From Sebaldella termitidis ATCC 33386 (GTDB lineage: Bacteria > Fusobacteriota > Fusobacteriia > Fusobacteriales > Leptotrichiaceae), in contig NC_013517.1 of the NCBI RefSeq assembly GCF_000024405.1, positions 992,001 to 1,056,000 on the forward strand: a stretch of DNA of 64,000 nucleotides. The letters are read 5' to 3'. Of this stretch, positions 22,185-59,803 are shown one piece after another. The notes beneath the pieces are model-generated. The model worked only from the letters and a program-made list of their open reading frames with translations. It searched no databases and was not told where the DNA came from. The translations under genes were made by a program, and so were the position numbers. Each line of letters begins with the position of its first letter. Position 1 is the stretch's first letter.

Positions 22185-22301
22185 GTGAAAAAACTTATAT
22201 TTAAGAATGCAGATCACTGCAAGCTGTTTTACATAAGCAGCCAAGAAAAGAAACATCAGATGAAAACAACAGGTTATAAAGTAAAAAATAACATGGCATA
22301 A
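22185..22301 (+). CDS. Possible 38-codon leader peptide
   Basis: GTG at 22185, four bases after a perfect GGAGG, opens VKKLIFKNADHCKLFYISSQ and ends at 22301. The short ORF upstream of the fifth autotransporter (about 63784 on, MKDLLFRTKQCKIEANVK) shows a similar LxF...C K pattern. No homology known; it could be a regulatory leader or a chance frame. Confidence 0.35.
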   Translation: MKKLIFKNADHCKLFYISSQEKKHQMKTTGYKVKNNMA

Positions 22302-22356
22302 TACTGAACAAAATGAAATGTAAACATTTTAATAAATCAAAAAAATAGGAGGAAAA

Positions 22357-22635
22357 ATGAGAAAAATCACGTTAATTTTTTTATTAATCTTGGTATCACT
22401 GACTCTTTACAGTAATGAGGCAAAAGCAGACAGAGCTGTGGAAGAAAGTGTAACAAAAGATTATGATCAGGACGGGGTGTATTCATCATATGAAAAAGCC
22501 TTGAGAAGGGCTCAGGGTTCGATATATGTGACATTACCCGAAAAAAGAGGATACTGGTATACTATGCTTGACAGAATAAAGGCGGAAGAGGAAGAATTAA
22601 TGCCGGATGAAACAGCAAGAATGAGAAGAAAATAA
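22357..22635 (+). CDS. Small secreted protein with EF-hand-like loop
   Basis: A 92-residue protein I do not recognise. It has a clear Sec signal peptide (RKITLIFLLILVSLTLYSNEAKA). The mature part contains DYDQDGVYSSYE, which fits the 12-residue EF-hand spacing D-x-D-x-D-G-x5-E, followed by a helix EKALRRAQGSIYVTLPEKRGYWYTML and a charged tail. A single loop of this type could bind calcium. GGAGG precedes the ATG. It is followed by a second small secreted protein and autotransporter 2, and the same pair, frameshifted, precedes autotransporter 4. The role may be in periplasmic handling or surface display of the autotransporter; that is inference. Confidence 0.8.
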   Translation: MRKITLIFLLILVSLTLYSNEAKADRAVEESVTKDYDQDGVYSSYEKALRRAQGSIYVTLPEKRGYWYTMLDRIKAEEEELMPDETARMRRK

Positions 22636-22653
22636 TAATTTTTGGGAGGAAAA

Positions 22654-22920
22654 ATGAAAAAACTAGCAGTAAAAGCACTTTTATTTATTATGGGAACGAT
22701 GCTGTATTCAGCGCCTACTTATGAATATAGGAGAGAATTAAGAGAAGGGGCAAGAGGAAAGTGGACTAATTTAAGACAGCATCTTAACAGCGGAACAAGA
22801 CTGGAAAAAGAGCTGACTAAAGTAGATAAACAAATTGATAAGAAAGTAAATGAAATTCAGGAAATAGAAGATTTATTATTTAGAATAGAACAATATAAGG
22901 CAGCAAATAATATAAGATAG
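22654..22920 (+). CDS. Small secreted charged helical (coiled-coil) protein
   Basis: An 88-residue protein starting at the ATG at 22654, with GGGAGG upstream. The N-terminus is a Sec signal peptide (KKLAVKALLFIMGTMLYSA) followed by PTYEYRRELREGARGKWTNL and a heptad-like helix with LEKELTKVDKQIDKKVNEIQ and EIEDLLFRIEQY. It resembles the small helical FadA-type adhesins of Fusobacterium only in size, secretion and helicity; I would not call it FadA. It sits 16 bases upstream of autotransporter 2. Possible chaperone or anchoring partner for the passenger, not proven. Confidence 0.8.
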   Translation: MKKLAVKALLFIMGTMLYSAPTYEYRRELREGARGKWTNLRQHLNSGTRLEKELTKVDKQIDKKVNEIQEIEDLLFRIEQYKAANNIR

Positions 22921-51597: not shown

Positions 51598-51708
51598 AAC
51601 AAAATAATATTCTAAAGAACTGAAAATTAAAATTAGTTTTTATCCCAGAAAATATAAAGAAATAATAAGAAAATAGTATTTTTAACCAAAAGCAGCTGCA
51701 GAATAAAA

Positions 51709-51737
51709 TTGACAAGGATAATAATTTTTAGTAAAAT
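51709..51737 (+). promoter_or_regulatory. Promoter of the frameshifted pair and autotransporter 4
   Basis: TTGACA (51709-51714), 17-base spacer ending TTTTTAG, TAAAAT (51732-51737), the same -10 context as the promoters at 22099 and 62929. The GTCYGACA box is not seen here. A leader of about 370 bases with a strong GGAGGG at 52013 but no matching gene follows. Confidence 0.6.
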
Positions 51738-52105
51738 ACAGGTAGATAGTAATCCTAAAATCTTTTCGATAATCACAATCTAATTTCCAAAAATTCGATT
51801 TTTTATTCTTATTATTAAAATATTTAAAAAAACAAACTTGCTGTTTTACAATGTAAAATAGGTTTTTATAATGCTTTTCAAAAACTCTGTTCCGATTCAT
51901 TTATATTTTCTGTTCTTATCTGTTCCAAAAAAATCCATAACTTATTCAGTCTATAATTTTTTAGTTTATATAAATTTTATAGTGTAAGGGTGTTTATATT
52001 AAAACATGAAAGGAGGGATACTGTTTATCTGTCGGCTTTTGTAATGCTTTTTGATTTTATTTGAAATAAATTCTGCAGTTTTAAACACAGGAACAGGAGG
52101 AAATT

Positions 52106-52383
52106 ATGAGAAAAGCAGTATTGATATTTCTGGTATTATGTACAATATTTGTAGTATACGGAAAAACAGATGAAGATATGAGACTTCTGGAAGAAAGCAT
52201 AACTAAAGATTATGATCAGGACGGTAAATATTCGGCCTATGAAAAAGCTTTAAGAAGGGCACAAGAAAGTATTTATGTAGCACTGCCCGAAAAAAAGGTT
52301 ATTGGTATACAATGCTGGAAAAAATCAAAATTGAAGAAGCGGAACTATATACTGATGTAGAAGCGAGAATGAAGAAAAAATAA
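52106..52383 (+). pseudogene. Frameshifted copy of the EF-hand-loop secreted protein
   Basis: The frame from 52106 gives MRKAVLIFLVLCTIFVVYGK, then DYDQDGKYSAYEKALRRAQ, aligned with the protein at 22357. It then runs off into an unrelated tail (KVIGIQCWKKSKL) and stops at 52360. In the frame restored by adding one A to the seven-A tract at 52290-52296, the sequence reads KGYWYTMLEKIKIEEAEL and ends EARMKKK at 52381-52383, matching the intact gene. So one base is missing in a homopolymer. Either a true mutation, phase variation, slippage during expression or a sequencing error; GGAGG upstream and codon integrity elsewhere favour recent origin. Confidence 0.85.
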
Positions 52384-52398
52384 AACAGGAGGATAAAA

Positions 52399-52666
52399 AT
52401 GAAAAAAATATTGCCTGTATTTTTGTTTTTTATCAGCTGCAGCAGTATCCAGTGCTGTAAAAACATATGAATACAAAAGAGAATTAAGAGAAGGGGCAAG
52501 AGGGAAATGGGTAAATCTGAGAAAACATTTAAGTAGCGGGGAAGGGCTCGAAAAAGAGCTGATAAAAGTAGACCGCCAAATAGATAAGAAGGTGAATGAA
52601 ATTCAGGAAATAGAAGAATTATTATTTAAAATAGAAAAATATAAGATTGAAAATAATATCAGATGA
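52399..52666 (+). pseudogene. Frameshifted copy of the secreted charged helical protein
   Basis: ATG at 52399 follows GGAGG and encodes a signal-like MKKILPVFLFF, but meets a stop after about 23 codons. Removing one T from the six-T tract at 52426-52431 restores SAAAVSSAVKTYEYKRELRE and on through GARGKWVNLRKHL to the end EKYKIENNIR at 52664-52666, matching the protein at 22654. The reading frame downstream is otherwise open and conserved. The repaired signal peptide would end near VSSA. As with its neighbour, the lesion is one base in a homopolymer. Confidence 0.85.
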
Positions 52667-52682
52667 TTTCAAAGGAGGAGAA

Positions 52683-55600
52683 ATGAAAAAATATAAAAAG
52701 TTTATAGTAGGATTTTTAGCATTGAATTCTATGATAACATCCTATAGTGAAACTTTGGGAGTTCAATCTTCGGGAAAATATGACAGAATATACGAAAATA
52801 TAATAAAAAATATAAACAGAGGCAGACCAAGCGATACTTCATATAAATTAATAGAACAAATGCTGAAAAAGAAAAATAAAGAATTAAAAGATTTATATAA
52901 TCAGGGCGATTATATTGTAAAGCCTGAATATCTGGAATGGCAGATATTTTTCAGCGGATTTTATGCAGAAAGGGATAAGGGGGATAATACTGAGGAAAAT
53001 GCTGAAAGACATTCAGATCCTACATATGGGACAACAGGGTTTTATGACGAAGACGGCAGATATATAATAACAGGAACAAATAAAGCAGCTTACGGAAAAG
53101 AATACAGAGATCCTCAGGCACCAAGAACCGTTAATCTGGGAGTAAGCATTCCTATAAAAGGGCTTTCCAGAGGAGAGGTACACCTTGATTTGCCGTCGGG
53201 AAGTCCTGTAGAGATAAATCCGAGAAATTATGATGTATCTCCTCCTTCCGGGCTGGTAATTCCTGAAATTAATGTGTTCAGATTTGAAATAAATATTCCT
53301 TCAGTAGTCCTGCCTGTTATAACTACTCCGGGTTCATTTACCGTATCTGTTCCTGATACCGGTAATGGAGATGATACTGGAAGTTATCTTGGAGTAGCAA
53401 ATTCATATACTGCTAAAATAGCTCAGTTTAATCTTACATCAGGACTTTTGGAAGGAACATGGAGCAGTACTTCCAGTCTGTCTGCTTACAGAGCAGTAAA
53501 TTTAAACGGGAAAAGCGATTACGGCGGAACTACAATGGGAAGCAGAGCAGATATTACAAATTATACTTATTCTTCAAACAGCGGTGACGGAGCCGTGGCA
53601 CTGTATAAAGTAGGGGGAGCTGAAAAAATAACACTGGGGACACAGGGAGATCCAAATGCTTTTATAATGAGAATAATAAGTAATGTGGGTGATTCATATC
53701 CGGCTGCCAGTACACTTCCGCATTTGATACAATATGATCCTCACGGAAGCCGAGGGACTTATAACAGATATCTTACGAATTATTACGGAACAGGAATTAC
53801 GCCTTCAGGAATATTTGATTATTATGCAGAGCTTAATAACTACGGAAGACTGGAGGGAATAGGTGATTCATTTCTAATGATAGGTCTTCAGGAGCATACG
53901 GGAAATTTCAGCCCCACTGTAAAAAATTACGGAACAATAATAGGGATCGCAGATGATCAGTATACTCAGGGCGGAAGAAGACATGTAGCTTTTTCATTTA
54001 TGGCACCGCAGCAGCATGGAACACAAGGCAGAAGATTTGAATTTTATAATATGACCGGTGGAAAAATTGAACTGCAGGCAAGAGAAAGTATTGCATTTAA
54101 TTTTGGTGCTTCTCCCGGACTTGCTACCAGACCGCATTTTTTGATATATAATGACGGAGATGTTGTTCTTTACGGGAATAACAGCGTGGGAGTGAAAACA
54201 GCAAATAATAATCTTGATCTCCCATATTCAAAACTGGTATTTAATAAACCTATAAGAATAAACGGAGATCAGAGTATAGGAGTAGAACTGGTAAAAACTA
54301 TGGATGACGGATATGGAAATGTAGAAGCCGGGAAATATGATCCTATGGAAGCTGTGATCAAAGTCATAATAGGTGACGAGCCGAACAGTAACACCGGAGA
54401 TTCTAAAGGAGATAAGTCAAAAGTAGAAGAATCAATAGGTTTATATATAAATAAATCAACTATTGATTACAGGCTCGGAACCTTTGATTTTCAGTTTGGG
54501 GAATATGCCAAAAGAAGTACTTTGATTAATATTTCCAGCGGAAAGTTATTTCTGGATGATAATAAAGTAAGTGAAATATTCATAAATAAGGGGATAGATA
54601 ATTTTGGTATTATTGCAACAGGATCAGCCTCCGAATTAACATTAAAACCAAATATTAAAATAGGAACTGCGGCGGATAATGTAAACGGAACAATAGCATT
54701 ATACGGGACAAACGGAGCAAAAATTCATCTTCATTCCGGAAATAATATCGAAACAAACGGACTAAATTCTCACGGAATAATACTAACCAATTCGAATACA
54801 GTTCTGGATGATACATCATCCGGCGGTTCAAACCATTCTTTTACAGCGACGGGTAATGAAAGTACAGTAATATATACAGAAAACGGAGCTTCAGTAAATC
54901 TAGCCAATTCATCAAATATAGATGTAAAAGCAACAGGAGAAAAATCAATAGGGGTATATACAAAAGGAGGAACAGTAACACTGGGAACAGCAGGTACAGG
55001 TACGGGAACATATGAAATAGGGAAAAACGGAGTTCTCTTTTATAGTGACGGTACCGGAAACGGAAGAATAAATATTTCGGGAACTGACTTTACTGTGGGA
55101 GAAGGTTCATTATTTGTAAGAATAAATACGCCGTCGTTAATTGCAGGTAATCAGCAGATAAATTTTACGCATAATACAGGAAATACAAATCTGAATCTGC
55201 TGTCAGGAGGTATAGGATTCGTCTATACCGGAGACGGAATTAATCCGGTAGGGCTTTCAGATATTCAGAATTATTTTTCAAATAATTTTACCGGAATCAG
55301 CAATATGAATGTAACAGTTAATAAAGGAGCAAGACTTTTTGTAATAGAAAAGTATGCATCTATGAATCTTTCGGATATTATAGCAATCAGTTCCCCGACA
55401 GGCTTATTTAATGATGTGCGGAATAACGGCGGAAGTAAAGCATTTATGGTAAGGGGTAATCTGGTTCTTGATCCTGCAGGGGGTGTAATTAACCTTGATG
55501 ATATAAATGAAGATTATAATAACATAGAAAGAGCACTAACGGGAATAACGGTGCCTTCGGGGGTGACTGTAACAGGAAGCGGCGACAGACAGACTGCATT

Positions 55601-58600
55601 GGTAGATGATAATTCATATGACAGTACATTATATGTAAAAATGGAGAATAACGGAACTATAAATCTTACAGGAAATAATTCAACAGCAATATATGTCAAT
55701 AACGGACAGATTGATAATAAGGGAACGGTCAGCTCTATAGGTAACGGAGGAATAGGGTTGTTTGGAGAAAATGGTACAGTGATTAAAAATACAAATTTAA
55801 TAACCATAGCCGATAACGGAGTAGGAATATACGGGATATCATATCAGGATCCTGCTTCAGTGCCTGTATACGGCGGAGGGAAAATCAATATTACCAATAC
55901 AGGAATAATTCAATCAAATACGGGACAGCACGCTATAGGAATATATGCCGAAAATAACAGGACAGGCGGAGGAATTGCGGATTCACATATAGATTTGTCA
56001 AATGGAAAAATAAATCTTCAGAATTCAGAAGGAGCAATAGGCTTATATGTGGATAAAGGAACAGTCACAGACTCAGGCTCTGAGATAACTGTGGGAAAAA
56101 ACGGCATAGGAATATATGCAAAAGACAGCGATATAACATTAACAGGGACAACAGTAAATTTATTTGGTGATAATGCTTTGGGGCTGTATGCTGACGGAAA
56201 TACCAATCTTATTGGGAATGGCCAGATAAACATATCAGGAAAAAATGTTGTGTTATTTAATATGGTTTCAAGCGGTTCAATAACTAATAATTTTGTGGTA
56301 AATAATGTAGCACCCGGTTCTTCATATACTTTGGGAAATATATCCGGAACGAGCTTTGAATATGCGGGAAGCAGTCACCTGTCATCAGATGGAACGCTGA
56401 TTAGCGGAAAAGATTCCACAATATTATTAAATGCTCTTTCATCAGTAAATGCTAATTCGGGAGAAATAAATATTGCTGCTCTTATAGCAGACGGGCAGTA
56501 TACAGGAATTACTCCTTCAGGATTCACTCCGGGAATAGAGGGGGAAAACAGAGGAACAATCATAATGGGGAATTTATCCGCGGGATTAATAGGGAAAAAT
56601 AATGCAAGATTAAAAAATGACGGTTTCATAACTGTAGGAAATAATTCGGCAGGTATGACATCTTTTGGAGGAGGTGCCCTTTTATTAAATACAAAATCTA
56701 TAATAATAGGGAGTGATTCACACGGGATGTATCTGCAGAATGGTACTGATATAACCAATGATACGGGGGGAATAATAACAAGTGCCGGTAATAATTCGGT
56801 GGGGATATATGCTGATGCTATAACAGGGACTATTACAAACAAAGGGATAATAAGGTTAACCGGTGATAAAGAAATAGGAATTTATGCAACAGGAGCAAGC
56901 AATAAAATAATTAACAATGACGGTTTAATAGAAATAGGCGACTCAATTGACATAAATGTCCCGAATATAGGAATCTACAGCGAAACTGCCGGAGATACAT
57001 TTACCAACAACGGAACTGTAACTTCCGGAAAAAATTCAATAGGAATGTACAATTACGGGGATACGGTAATACAAAACGGAATATTGAATGTGGGAGATAC
57101 GGGGGTGGGAGCATATATAACAAATGGTAATATAACTAATACAACTGCAGCACAGTTCAATTTTATGAGCATAAATGCTATAGGAGTATATGCTTTAAAC
57201 AGTCAGGTTTCCAACAGTGCCTTGATGAATATAGGCAACAGTAATTACGGATTTATATTAATGGACAGCAGCTTTATAAATATGGCACCTAATATTAATC
57301 TGGGAACAGATTCGGTGTTTGTTTACAGATCAGGGGCAGGAAATATAGTAAATAATGCAGGTACTGCCATAGCAATGAGCGGATCAGACAACATTGCTTA
57401 TTATACGATAAACGGCGGAAGTATAACAAATGACGGGGATATTATCGGAACAGCCGGAAAAAATAATGTAGGTATTTATAATGTCGGAGGCGGAATTCTA
57501 AATAACGGTATAGTGGCGATAGGTGATTCAGATATAGCATATAAAAAAGACAGCCTGGGAAACTATATATATGATGTTAACGGAAACAGAATACTAGATG
57601 CGGAGAACAGTAAATATGCAGTTGGACTTTACGGGGAAGGTTCTGCTATATCAAACAGTGCATCAGGAAATATTACAGTAGGTGAGGGTTCGATAGGAAT
57701 AGCCACAAAGGGCGGAAGCGGAATCAATGATGGAGTAATAACAGGAACGGGTGAAAGTACAAGAGGTATGTATACTGAGAAAGGAACAGTAATAAATAAT
57801 AATATCATAAATATAACAGGGGATAATGCAATCGGAATGGCAGGAAACGGAGCAGGATCAGTAGTTATAAACAATGGTACGGTTACAGTTACCGGAAAAA
57901 ATGTAATAGGATTATACGGGAATCTCGCAACAACAGTAATAAACTCTGGAACAGTAATAGCAAATGGCGAAGGTGCAGCGGGAATAGTACTTTCACAAGG
58001 TTCGAAGCTGGATAATACAGCAAGCGGGACTATGATAATTAATAGTGTAAGAACTGAGAATTACGGGACAAGTGCCGGTGAAATATATGAAACTCCTACA
58101 ATAATAAATTCAGGAGTAATAAAAATATCAGAAAAATTTGAGACAGACGGAATAAATGTAGTAATAAAGGTAGATCCTGAAAGTGTAAGAAAGCCCACAC
58201 CGGAAGAGATAGCAGCCGGCGGATATGATCCGTCAGATTCAGGAGCGGACTATCTTATATCAAATGCAGTGAGTATAGAGGCGCCTTCATTTACTATAAC
58301 AGATCCGCTGCAGATAAGCGGAAATTTCACAGAAGGAACAAATGTAAAAAAATATAAACTTGAAGATATAATAAAATCAGCTTCGGGGCACGGAGTAAAT
58401 GAAGGAATGGTTCCTGTAGTGAGCAGATCACTGACCTGGCGGGCAACTCCGATAGTAAATGAAGCAGGACATGTGGATATCTGGATGGAGAAAATAGACT
58501 ACAATGAATTTACCGGAGGCTTGTGGTATGAGGAATTCGGTGCCGCTTTGGAAGATAAATACTATAATGCTGCAGGAGATGCACTTACTATTTATGATAA

Positions 58601-59612
58601 AATAGATGTCATAGAAAAAGAATCTGATTTTAGACATGTAATGGCAAGTCTTGCAGGAAATATATATTCCAATATAAACCAGCGTGAGGAAGATATGGCA
58701 AGAACTTTTGAAAATGCATTGGATGTAATCATAAATTCAAAAAATAATACAAAAGAAAATATAAAAATAAATATAATAGCTGGAAAAGGTAAGACTAAGG
58801 ATGATACAGACGGTATAACAGATTATGATTACACAACAACCGGAATACTCGCACTCAGAGAGGTGGAAAGAACCCACAGACATACATTCGGTTACTCGCT
58901 CGGATATCTTCATACAGGATTTGAATTTAAGGATGGAAATGAGAGTGAGGAGCTGGTGGATACAATACAGCTGGGAGTACATAATAAATATACAGTAAAC
59001 GGATGGAAGCTAAGAAACGATTTGACAGGAAGAGTAAGTTTTCATAATATAGACAGAAATATAGACTGGCCGAACAGACCGTTTGGGACAGAAAGGGAAG
59101 AAATGAACGGAAATTATGAAACTTACAGCTTCACATCTGATAATATACTGGGAAAAGAATTTAGTATTGGGAAACAAGTAAGTGTAATGCCTTACGGGGC
59201 ATTCAGAGCTATGTATGTGACAAGACCGACATTTAGCGAGAGCGGTACGGAAAGACTCCAGGTAGAGGGAAATGATGCTTGGAGCGCAAAGCCGAGAGCG
59301 GGATTGGAGGTGAAAGGAGAGATGCCGCTGAGTAACAAAACAGCATGGAAACTAACTGGAAAACTTGACTTTGCTTATGAATATGAACTCGCTGACTTAA
59401 ATGAGCGGGAAAGAGCAAAACTCATAGCAGTGGAAGACAGTTACCATAAATTATCAAAACCAGAGGAAGAAAAAGGTATGTTCAGAGCAAAAGCTTTATT
59501 TGGCATAGAGGTGGAGGATAGATACGGTTTATTCCTTACAGGGGAATATATGACGGGAAATGATGATCAAGATGATTACAGAGCAGGAGTAACACTAAAA
59601 GCAGTATTTTAA
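52683..59612 (+). CDS. Giant autotransporter adhesin 4 (type V secretion), subfamily B
   Basis: With the ATG at 52683 (GGAGGAG upstream) the protein has 2309 residues. It has a signal peptide (KKYKKFIVGFLALNSMITSYS), the N-terminal domain (KYDRIYENIIKNINRGRPS to KPEYLEWQIFFSGFYAE), then TGNGDDTGSYLG and LLEGTWSSTSS shared with autotransporter 2. The passenger has beta-helix repeats and YGNNSVGVKTANNN, like autotransporter 2. The beta-domain begins near LWYEEFGAALEDKYY and ends LKAVF. It is the most divergent of the four beta-domains (for example IKINIIAGKGKTKDDTDGI). Preceded by two frameshifted small genes. Confidence 0.95.
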   Translation: MKKYKKFIVGFLALNSMITSYSETLGVQSSGKYDRIYENIIKNINRGRPSDTSYKLIEQMLKKKNKELKDLYNQGDYIVKPEYLEWQIFFSGFYAERDKGDNTEENAERHSDPTYGTTGFYDEDGRYIITGTNKAAYGKEYRDPQAPRTVNLGVSIPIKGLSRGEVHLDLPSGSPVEINPRNYDVSPPSGLVIPEINVFRFEINIPSVVLPVITTPGSFTVSVPDTGNGDDTGSYLGVANSYTAKIAQFNLTSGLLEGTWSSTSSLSAYRAVNLNGKSDYGGTTMGSRADITNYTYSSNSGDGAVALYKVGGAEKITLGTQGDPNAFIMRIISNVGDSYPAASTLPHLIQYDPHGSRGTYNRYLTNYYGTGITPSGIFDYYAELNNYGRLEGIGDSFLMIGLQEHTGNFSPTVKNYGTIIGIADDQYTQGGRRHVAFSFMAPQQHGTQGRRFEFYNMTGGKIELQARESIAFNFGASPGLATRPHFLIYNDGDVVLYGNNSVGVKTANNNLDLPYSKLVFNKPIRINGDQSIGVELVKTMDDGYGNVEAGKYDPMEAVIKVIIGDEPNSNTGDSKGDKSKVEESIGLYINKSTIDYRLGTFDFQFGEYAKRSTLINISSGKLFLDDNKVSEIFINKGIDNFGIIATGSASELTLKPNIKIGTAADNVNGTIALYGTNGAKIHLHSGNNIETNGLNSHGIILTNSNTVLDDTSSGGSNHSFTATGNESTVIYTENGASVNLANSSNIDVKATGEKSIGVYTKGGTVTLGTAGTGTGTYEIGKNGVLFYSDGTGNGRINISGTDFTVGEGSLFVRINTPSLIAGNQQINFTHNTGNTNLNLLSGGIGFVYTGDGINPVGLSDIQNYFSNNFTGISNMNVTVNKGARLFVIEKYASMNLSDIIAISSPTGLFNDVRNNGGSKAFMVRGNLVLDPAGGVINLDDINEDYNNIERALTGITVPSGVTVTGSGDRQTALVDDNSYDSTLYVKMENNGTINLTGNNSTAIYVNNGQIDNKGTVSSIGNGGIGLFGENGTVIKNTNLITIADNGVGIYGISYQDPASVPVYGGGKINITNTGIIQSNTGQHAIGIYAENNRTGGGIADSHIDLSNGKINLQNSEGAIGLYVDKGTVTDSGSEITVGKNGIGIYAKDSDITLTGTTVNLFGDNALGLYADGNTNLIGNGQINISGKNVVLFNMVSSGSITNNFVVNNVAPGSSYTLGNISGTSFEYAGSSHLSSDGTLISGKDSTILLNALSSVNANSGEINIAALIADGQYTGITPSGFTPGIEGENRGTIIMGNLSAGLIGKNNARLKNDGFITVGNNSAGMTSFGGGALLLNTKSIIIGSDSHGMYLQNGTDITNDTGGIITSAGNNSVGIYADAITGTITNKGIIRLTGDKEIGIYATGASNKIINNDGLIEIGDSIDINVPNIGIYSETAGDTFTNNGTVTSGKNSIGMYNYGDTVIQNGILNVGDTGVGAYITNGNITNTTAAQFNFMSINAIGVYALNSQVSNSALMNIGNSNYGFILMDSSFINMAPNINLGTDSVFVYRSGAGNIVNNAGTAIAMSGSDNIAYYTINGGSITNDGDIIGTAGKNNVGIYNVGGGILNNGIVAIGDSDIAYKKDSLGNYIYDVNGNRILDAENSKYAVGLYGEGSAISNSASGNITVGEGSIGIATKGGSGINDGVITGTGESTRGMYTEKGTVINNNIINITGDNAIGMAGNGAGSVVINNGTVTVTGKNVIGLYGNLATTVINSGTVIANGEGAAGIVLSQGSKLDNTASGTMIINSVRTENYGTSAGEIYETPTIINSGVIKISEKFETDGINVVIKVDPESVRKPTPEEIAAGGYDPSDSGADYLISNAVSIEAPSFTITDPLQISGNFTEGTNVKKYKLEDIIKSASGHGVNEGMVPVVSRSLTWRATPIVNEAGHVDIWMEKIDYNEFTGGLWYEEFGAALEDKYYNAAGDALTIYDKIDVIEKESDFRHVMASLAGNIYSNINQREEDMARTFENALDVIINSKNNTKENIKINIIAGKGKTKDDTDGITDYDYTTTGILALREVERTHRHTFGYSLGYLHTGFEFKDGNESEELVDTIQLGVHNKYTVNGWKLRNDLTGRVSFHNIDRNIDWPNRPFGTEREEMNGNYETYSFTSDNILGKEFSIGKQVSVMPYGAFRAMYVTRPTFSESGTERLQVEGNDAWSAKPRAGLEVKGEMPLSNKTAWKLTGKLDFAYEYELADLNERERAKLIAVEDSYHKLSKPEEEKGMFRAKALFGIEVEDRYGLFLTGEYMTGNDDQDDYRAGVTLKAVF

Positions 59613-59654
59613 TATTTTACTGTCATAAAAATTTGAAATTTAGATAAGGAATAG

Positions 59655-59664
59655 TGGTATGTTC
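59655..59664 (+). repeat. Conserved TGGTATGTTC downstream of autotransporter 4
   Basis: The decamer starts 43 bases after the stop codon, nearly the same offset as behind autotransporters 2 and 3 (40 bases). Confidence 0.55.
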
Positions 59665-59707
59665 ATATTTAAAAAGTAAAATTAATATTTTAGGAAACAA
59701 ATATAAG

Positions 59708-59763
59708 AAGAAACTGCCGGAATACCAAAGGAAAATGAGAATATTCAGGCAGTTTCTTTTATT
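59708..59763 (+). terminator. Terminator of autotransporter 4
   Basis: GAAACTGCC (59710-59718) pairs with GGCAGTTTC (59748-59756), extended by GAATA/TATTC across a one-base bulge, then a T-run. Confidence 0.8.
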
Positions 59764-59803
59764 TTGTAAAATAAGGCTGATGTGTAAATTTTACTGATAA
59801 TAA

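What the first reader, a model, noticed from the sequence alone, without database searches (positions are those of the whole stretch)
52106..52666. Both accessory genes of autotransporter 4 carry single-base homopolymer frameshifts
The A7 tract (52290-52296) lacks one A and the T6 tract (52426-52431) has one T too many, relative to the intact pair. Outside those sites the frames stay open and conserved. Two independent homopolymer lesions in neighbouring genes point to phase variation, recent inactivation or slippage, or to sequencing error.
Basis: seen in the sequence. Interest (0 to 1): 0.65.

Follow-up and report, generated by a model that had tools for sequence, protein, structure and literature searches.

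The report
Decaying helper genes beside an autotransporter
Two small secreted-protein genes in front of a large surface protein of a termite-gut bacterium are each knocked out of frame, most likely a recent and harmless loss because the same genome carries about eleven intact copies; it is an ordinary case of gene decay rather than a genetic switch.

Summary
The window lies in Sebaldella termitidis NCTC 11300. Both small genes before autotransporter 4 are frameshifted: gene B leaves frame at about 52290 (stop 52360), gene C within 52399-52466 (stop 52470). The displaced remainders stay open and conserved. The tracts (A7, T6) are shorter than a published phase-variation cut-off. The same genome holds 11 intact pairs and one older wreck. 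Across four Sebaldella genomes 6 of 20 autotransporter-linked pairs are broken against 0 of 11 stand-alone pairs (one-sided p 0.053), while the autotransporters mostly stay full length. The broken pair shows long purifying selection with slight relaxation after the lesions, so the loss looks recent. Best explanation: real, recent, tolerated inactivation of a redundant accessory pair. Sequencing error cannot be excluded, because no second strain or reads were available. B's lesion happens to form an in-frame A_AAA_AAG heptamer, leaving a small chance of frameshift rescue.

The parts
52106..52360 (+). gene B as read in frame 0 (84 aa, altered after residue 63 and truncated)
   Evidence: first 63 codons align with 28 intact copies
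52290..52297 (+). B lesion site: A7 run, one base shorter than the intact Glu-Lys-Arg-Gly codons; also forms an in-frame A_AAA_AAG heptamer (52291-52297)
52297..52383 (+). displaced 3' part of gene B, open and conserved in the -1 frame
52399..52470 (+). gene C as read in frame 0 (23 aa, signal-peptide start then altered residues)
52399..52466 (+). stretch within which C carries a net one-base excess (contains A7, T5, T6 and A5 runs)
52466..52666 (+). displaced mature part of gene C, open and conserved
52683..59612 (+). autotransporter 4, intact (2309 aa from this ATG), autotransporter beta-domain
51709..51737 (+). sigma-70-like promoter candidate (TTGACA, 17, TAAAAT); such matches are no commoner here than in shuffles
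51600..59764 (+). segment (pair plus autotransporter 4) absent from the same place in close relative G003
22357..22635 (+). intact B of the other pair in the window
22654..22920 (+). intact C of the other pair in the window (ATG at 22654; the listed TTG at 22642 lies before its Shine-Dalgarno)

Best explanation
The B and C genes are recent pseudogenes. In Sebaldella a small gene set (A, B, C: short proteins with signal-peptide-like starts) often sits directly in front of a large autotransporter, as a likely operon. The genome carries eleven other intact B-C pairs, three of them stand-alone, so a pair in any one operon can be lost while the other copies presumably supply the function in trans. 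In this operon A is not recognisable, and B and C have each taken a single-base frameshift recently; the autotransporter behind them has stayed intact. Shown: the frameshifts in the reference, the intact copies, the decay of other linked pairs, the intact autotransporter. Inferred: redundancy in trans as the reason, and that A, B and C serve the autotransporters at all.
For: 11 intact pairs and 1 decayed remnant in the genome. 6 of 20 autotransporter-linked pairs broken against 0 of 11 stand-alone pairs in 4 Sebaldella genomes (Fisher one-sided p 0.053), 4 more places undetermined at contig ends. Autotransporters beside broken pairs: 2309 aa here, 2229, 2266 and 2312 aa, at least 2069 aa to a contig end and one seen only for 747 aa to a contig end. 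Branch omega 0.11 against 0.071, implied neutral share of the branch 4% (0 to 14%). Residues found in no other copy: 1 of 35 codons before B's lesion, 5 of 28 after it, 7 of 66 in C; against other copies Fisher p 0.050. Pairs are dispensable for some autotransporters: 6 of the 11 own-genome rows have no recognisable pair.
Against: The selection tests are weak: p is about 0.05, the omega interval overlaps that of the rest of the tree, and an intact stand-alone copy (G2_C84) shows similar counts of unusual residues after the same point (5 and 6). The linked/stand-alone contrast rests on 31 places, many in draft genomes. B and C have no known function (no Pfam or NCBIfam match above cut-off), so redundancy is an inference. 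No second S. termitidis strain was available.
Confidence: 0.68

Rival explanations
1. Sequencing or assembly error: both genes are intact in the cell and the 2009 reference is wrong at two places.
For: 454 reads are prone to run-length errors (recalled); the two sites are A- and T-rich; outside them both genes read as conserved. Singleton frameshifted genes are likely to be an indel or a sequencing error (PMC3711429, passages).
Against: Illumina polishing and a stated error rate below 1 in 100,000. In 24 intact ORFs of at least 200 aa in the window, 136 runs of 6 or more bases show no frameshift, 15 of them in autotransporter 4 next door (these ORFs were chosen for being open). All 11 other pairs in the same genome are in frame. 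B's site has no eight-base run in any of 28 relatives. Slightly relaxed residues after the lesions.
Confidence: 0.18
2. Phase variation: slipped-strand changes in the A7 and T6 tracts switch the pair on and off.
For: Surface-related genes, one-base differences at short homopolymers, otherwise conserved frames.
Against: The cut-off used for phase-variable A/T tracts in Campylobacter is 10 or more (PMC6321876, passages); the tracts here are 7 and 6. No intact copy keeps a comparable uninterrupted run at B's site. 25 runs of 7, 13 of 8 and 1 of 9 sit unshifted in intact ORFs of the same window.
Confidence: 0.06
3. Recoding: ribosomes slip -1 on the in-frame A_AAA_AAG heptamer of B (and something similar happens in C), so full-length protein is still made at a reduced level.
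For: The heptamer at 52291-52297 is in frame and a -1 slip leads exactly into the conserved frame (sequence); such in-frame heptamers are rare here, 5 in 16,479 codons of intact ORFs; A_AAA_AAG is the E. coli dnaX signal (PMC3711429, passages). Low omega on the branch fits continued use.
Against: No significant downstream structure (z -1.12), no upstream Shine-Dalgarno stimulator seen by eye, no other copy has it, and C needs a shift in the other direction with no known signal. Loss of a base at this A-rich site can create the heptamer by accident.
Confidence: 0.06

Closest known systems
Lineage-specific decay of capC/capD autotransporters in Campylobacter (PMC7168839, abstract and passages)
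   Same: Surface-protein loci decay by frameshifts and stops, for capC independent of tract length; functional redundancy is offered as the reason.
   Different: There the autotransporter itself decays; here it stays open and the small genes in front of it decay.
radABCD operon of Fusobacterium nucleatum (PMC12186487, passages)
   Same: Four-gene layout with the large autotransporter last; the autotransporter here is a distant relative of RadD (NF049908, 319 bits against a cut-off of 3500). Loss of radC is reported there to raise radD expression.
   Different: B and C profiles find nothing outside Sebaldella in 98 Fusobacteriota genomes; no sequence relation to RadA, RadB or RadC was shown.
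dnaX programmed -1 frameshifting (PMC3711429, passages)
   Same: In-frame A_AAA_AAG in gene B.
   Different: No stimulators found, not present in the intact relatives.

Membership tests
recent pseudogene | reading frame broken in this copy, intact homologues exist | tested here: met
recent pseudogene | relaxed selection after the break | tested here: inconclusive
   right direction, p about 0.05
recent pseudogene | lesion confirmed by independent reads or strains | not testable with these tools
   no reads; one genome per species held
phase-variable gene | hypermutable tract long enough (A/T 10 or more by PMC6321876) | tested here: not met
   A7 and T6
phase-variable gene | tract kept at the site in homologues | tested here: not met
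   B only; C's site cannot be aligned base by base
phase-variable gene | mixed tract lengths in a population | not testable with these tools
   no reads
programmed -1 frameshift | slippery heptamer in frame and leading into the conserved frame | tested here: met
   gene B only
programmed -1 frameshift | stimulatory structure downstream | tested here: not met
   z -1.12 over 80 nt
programmed -1 frameshift | conserved in homologues | tested here: not met
   0 of 28 intact copies
radABC accessory genes | sequence homology to RadA, RadB or RadC | tested here: inconclusive
   no B or C match in the other 94 Fusobacteriota genomes at E 0.001; F. nucleatum proteins were not compared one by one

The most novel reading that the evidence does not exclude
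Gene B is not dead: the one-base loss has put a dnaX-type slippery heptamer exactly in frame, so ribosomes still make a low, fixed share of full-length B, turning a broken accessory gene into a dosage-reduced one while the autotransporter behind it is kept.
Probability: 0.05. Interest if true: 0.55.

Novelty: new member of a known kind. Interest (0 to 1): 0.2.

Why it matters
It shows, in a genus with many large autotransporters, that the small gene set in front of them is shed repeatedly while the autotransporters persist. That gives a testable statement about dependence: either the small proteins work in trans from a few loci, or some autotransporters do not need them. The single case itself is ordinary gene decay.

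Tried and rejected
A slip of an A8 tract in B was set aside because no relative has one. Pinning C's lesion to the T6 run was dropped as undecidable. A structure of B was predicted but came out poor (pLDDT 68, pTM 0.29) and was not searched. Family libraries gave nothing usable for B or C. A script with swapped arguments failed after its first line and was rerun. The control with the old wreck G3_C319 was uninformative: the first part of its B has dN/dS 0.18 against its nearest relative, the same as the broken copy here against that relative. The hand-added totals (22 and 38) were off by one; one search corrects them (23 and 39).

Rows dropped before counts: of the 28 other copies listed, G1_C107 (C broken) and G1_C48 (its C was misread by my script; searches show it open) were left out of the tree (26 of 28 plus the broken copy); G1_C123 (very divergent) and G1_C34 (cut by a contig end) were also left out of the segment, bootstrap and private-residue tests (24 of 28 plus the broken copy).

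Full report
What the sequence is. The genome has 4,486,650 bases in three contigs, which equals the published figures for Sebaldella termitidis NCTC 11300 (PMC3035275, passages). The finding concerns two short genes, here called B and C, that lie directly in front of an autotransporter of 2309 aa with a clear autotransporter beta-domain.

The lesions. B begins at 52106. Its frame 0 reads 63 conserved codons, then 21 unrelated ones, and stops at 52360; the conserved remainder lies in the -1 frame and runs to 52383. C begins at 52399, stops at 52470 in frame 0, and its conserved mature part lies in another frame to 52666. For C the excess base can sit in any of several short runs in a variable signal peptide.

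The family. Searches of the own genome give 11 intact pairs and one decayed remnant besides this pair. In the genus (four genomes held) there are 35 places with a recognisable B or C, this one included. B and C are found in 4 of 98 Fusobacteriota genomes, all of this genus, and match no Pfam or NCBIfam family above its cut-off. A third small gene, A, precedes many pairs; it is not recognisable here and is a weak remnant before the other pair of the window.

Decay is recurrent and so far seen only next to autotransporters. Sorting the 35 places by what follows: 20 are followed by an autotransporter, 6 of them broken (this pair, the remnant at 2424738, G2_C49, G2_C2, G3_C319, and C alone in G1_C107; in two of the 20, G1_C83a and G1_C107, the autotransporter starts 500 to 600 bases on rather than within 33); 11 stand alone, none broken; 4 end at contig ends. 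One-sided Fisher p is 0.053, so this is a trend. The autotransporters beside the broken pairs read 2309, 2229, 2266 and 2312 aa, at least 2069 aa, and one at least 747 aa, the last two to contig ends. Six of eleven own-genome autotransporters that match this passenger have no recognisable pair.

Age of the loss. On a tree of 27 copies and in a refit with 25 the branch of this pair has omega 0.10 and 0.11 (bootstrap 0.064 to 0.208) against 0.071 for the rest in the refit. The long branch was therefore mostly under purifying selection. Residues seen in no other copy are 1 of 35 before B's lesion, 5 of 28 after it and 7 of 66 in C; the contrast with other copies has p 0.050, or 0.044 without near duplicates. 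One intact copy, G2_C84, shows a similar excess, so this is suggestive only. It fits a recent true loss better than a reading error, which should leave no trace after the lesion.

The site. In the close relative G003 the stretch 51600-59764, with the pair and autotransporter 4, is missing and the flanks (86 to 92% identical) meet within 8 bases. In G002 the same place holds an autotransporter with a different passenger and no recognisable pair. The locus is thus plastic; whether G003 lost the segment or S. termitidis gained it is open, though the presence of an autotransporter in G002 favours loss in G003.

Mechanism. Shown: two one-base frameshifts in the reference, intact copies, intact autotransporter. 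Inferred: the other copies make this pair dispensable. The untranslated stretch left in C before the autotransporter might affect its expression; in F. nucleatum loss of radC raises radD expression (PMC12186487, passages), but kinship of C to RadC is not shown. Recoding of B through the in-frame A_AAA_AAG (5 such in 16,479 codons of intact ORFs) is possible but lacks a stimulatory structure and would not help C.

Print. Two papers in the library hold both Sebaldella and autotransporter (listing only); neither title concerns these genes. No paper on the pair was seen in the listings.

Noticed in passing
window 22190-22350: A decayed A gene lies in front of the intact pair of the window (weak profile match, E 0.0009), so that operon has begun to lose its accessory genes too.
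   Followed up: partly
window 22357-22635 and relatives: B proteins carry DYDQDGxYSSYE, which by eye resembles an EF-hand calcium loop (motif recalled); Pfam gave no EF-hand match, and the divergent copy G1_C123 has lost it.
   Followed up: partly
window 51600-59764: The whole segment with autotransporter 4 is absent in close relative G003 with tight junctions, while G002 has a different passenger at the same place.
   Followed up: partly
G000:C1 at 304 kb, 683 kb and 2430 kb (L045, L043, L044): Three stand-alone A-B-C loci without an autotransporter are kept, with like-sized next genes in G002 for at least two of them.
   Followed up: partly
window 22642: The listed TTG start of the intact C is probably wrong; the ATG at 22654 follows a Shine-Dalgarno sequence.
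   Followed up: yes
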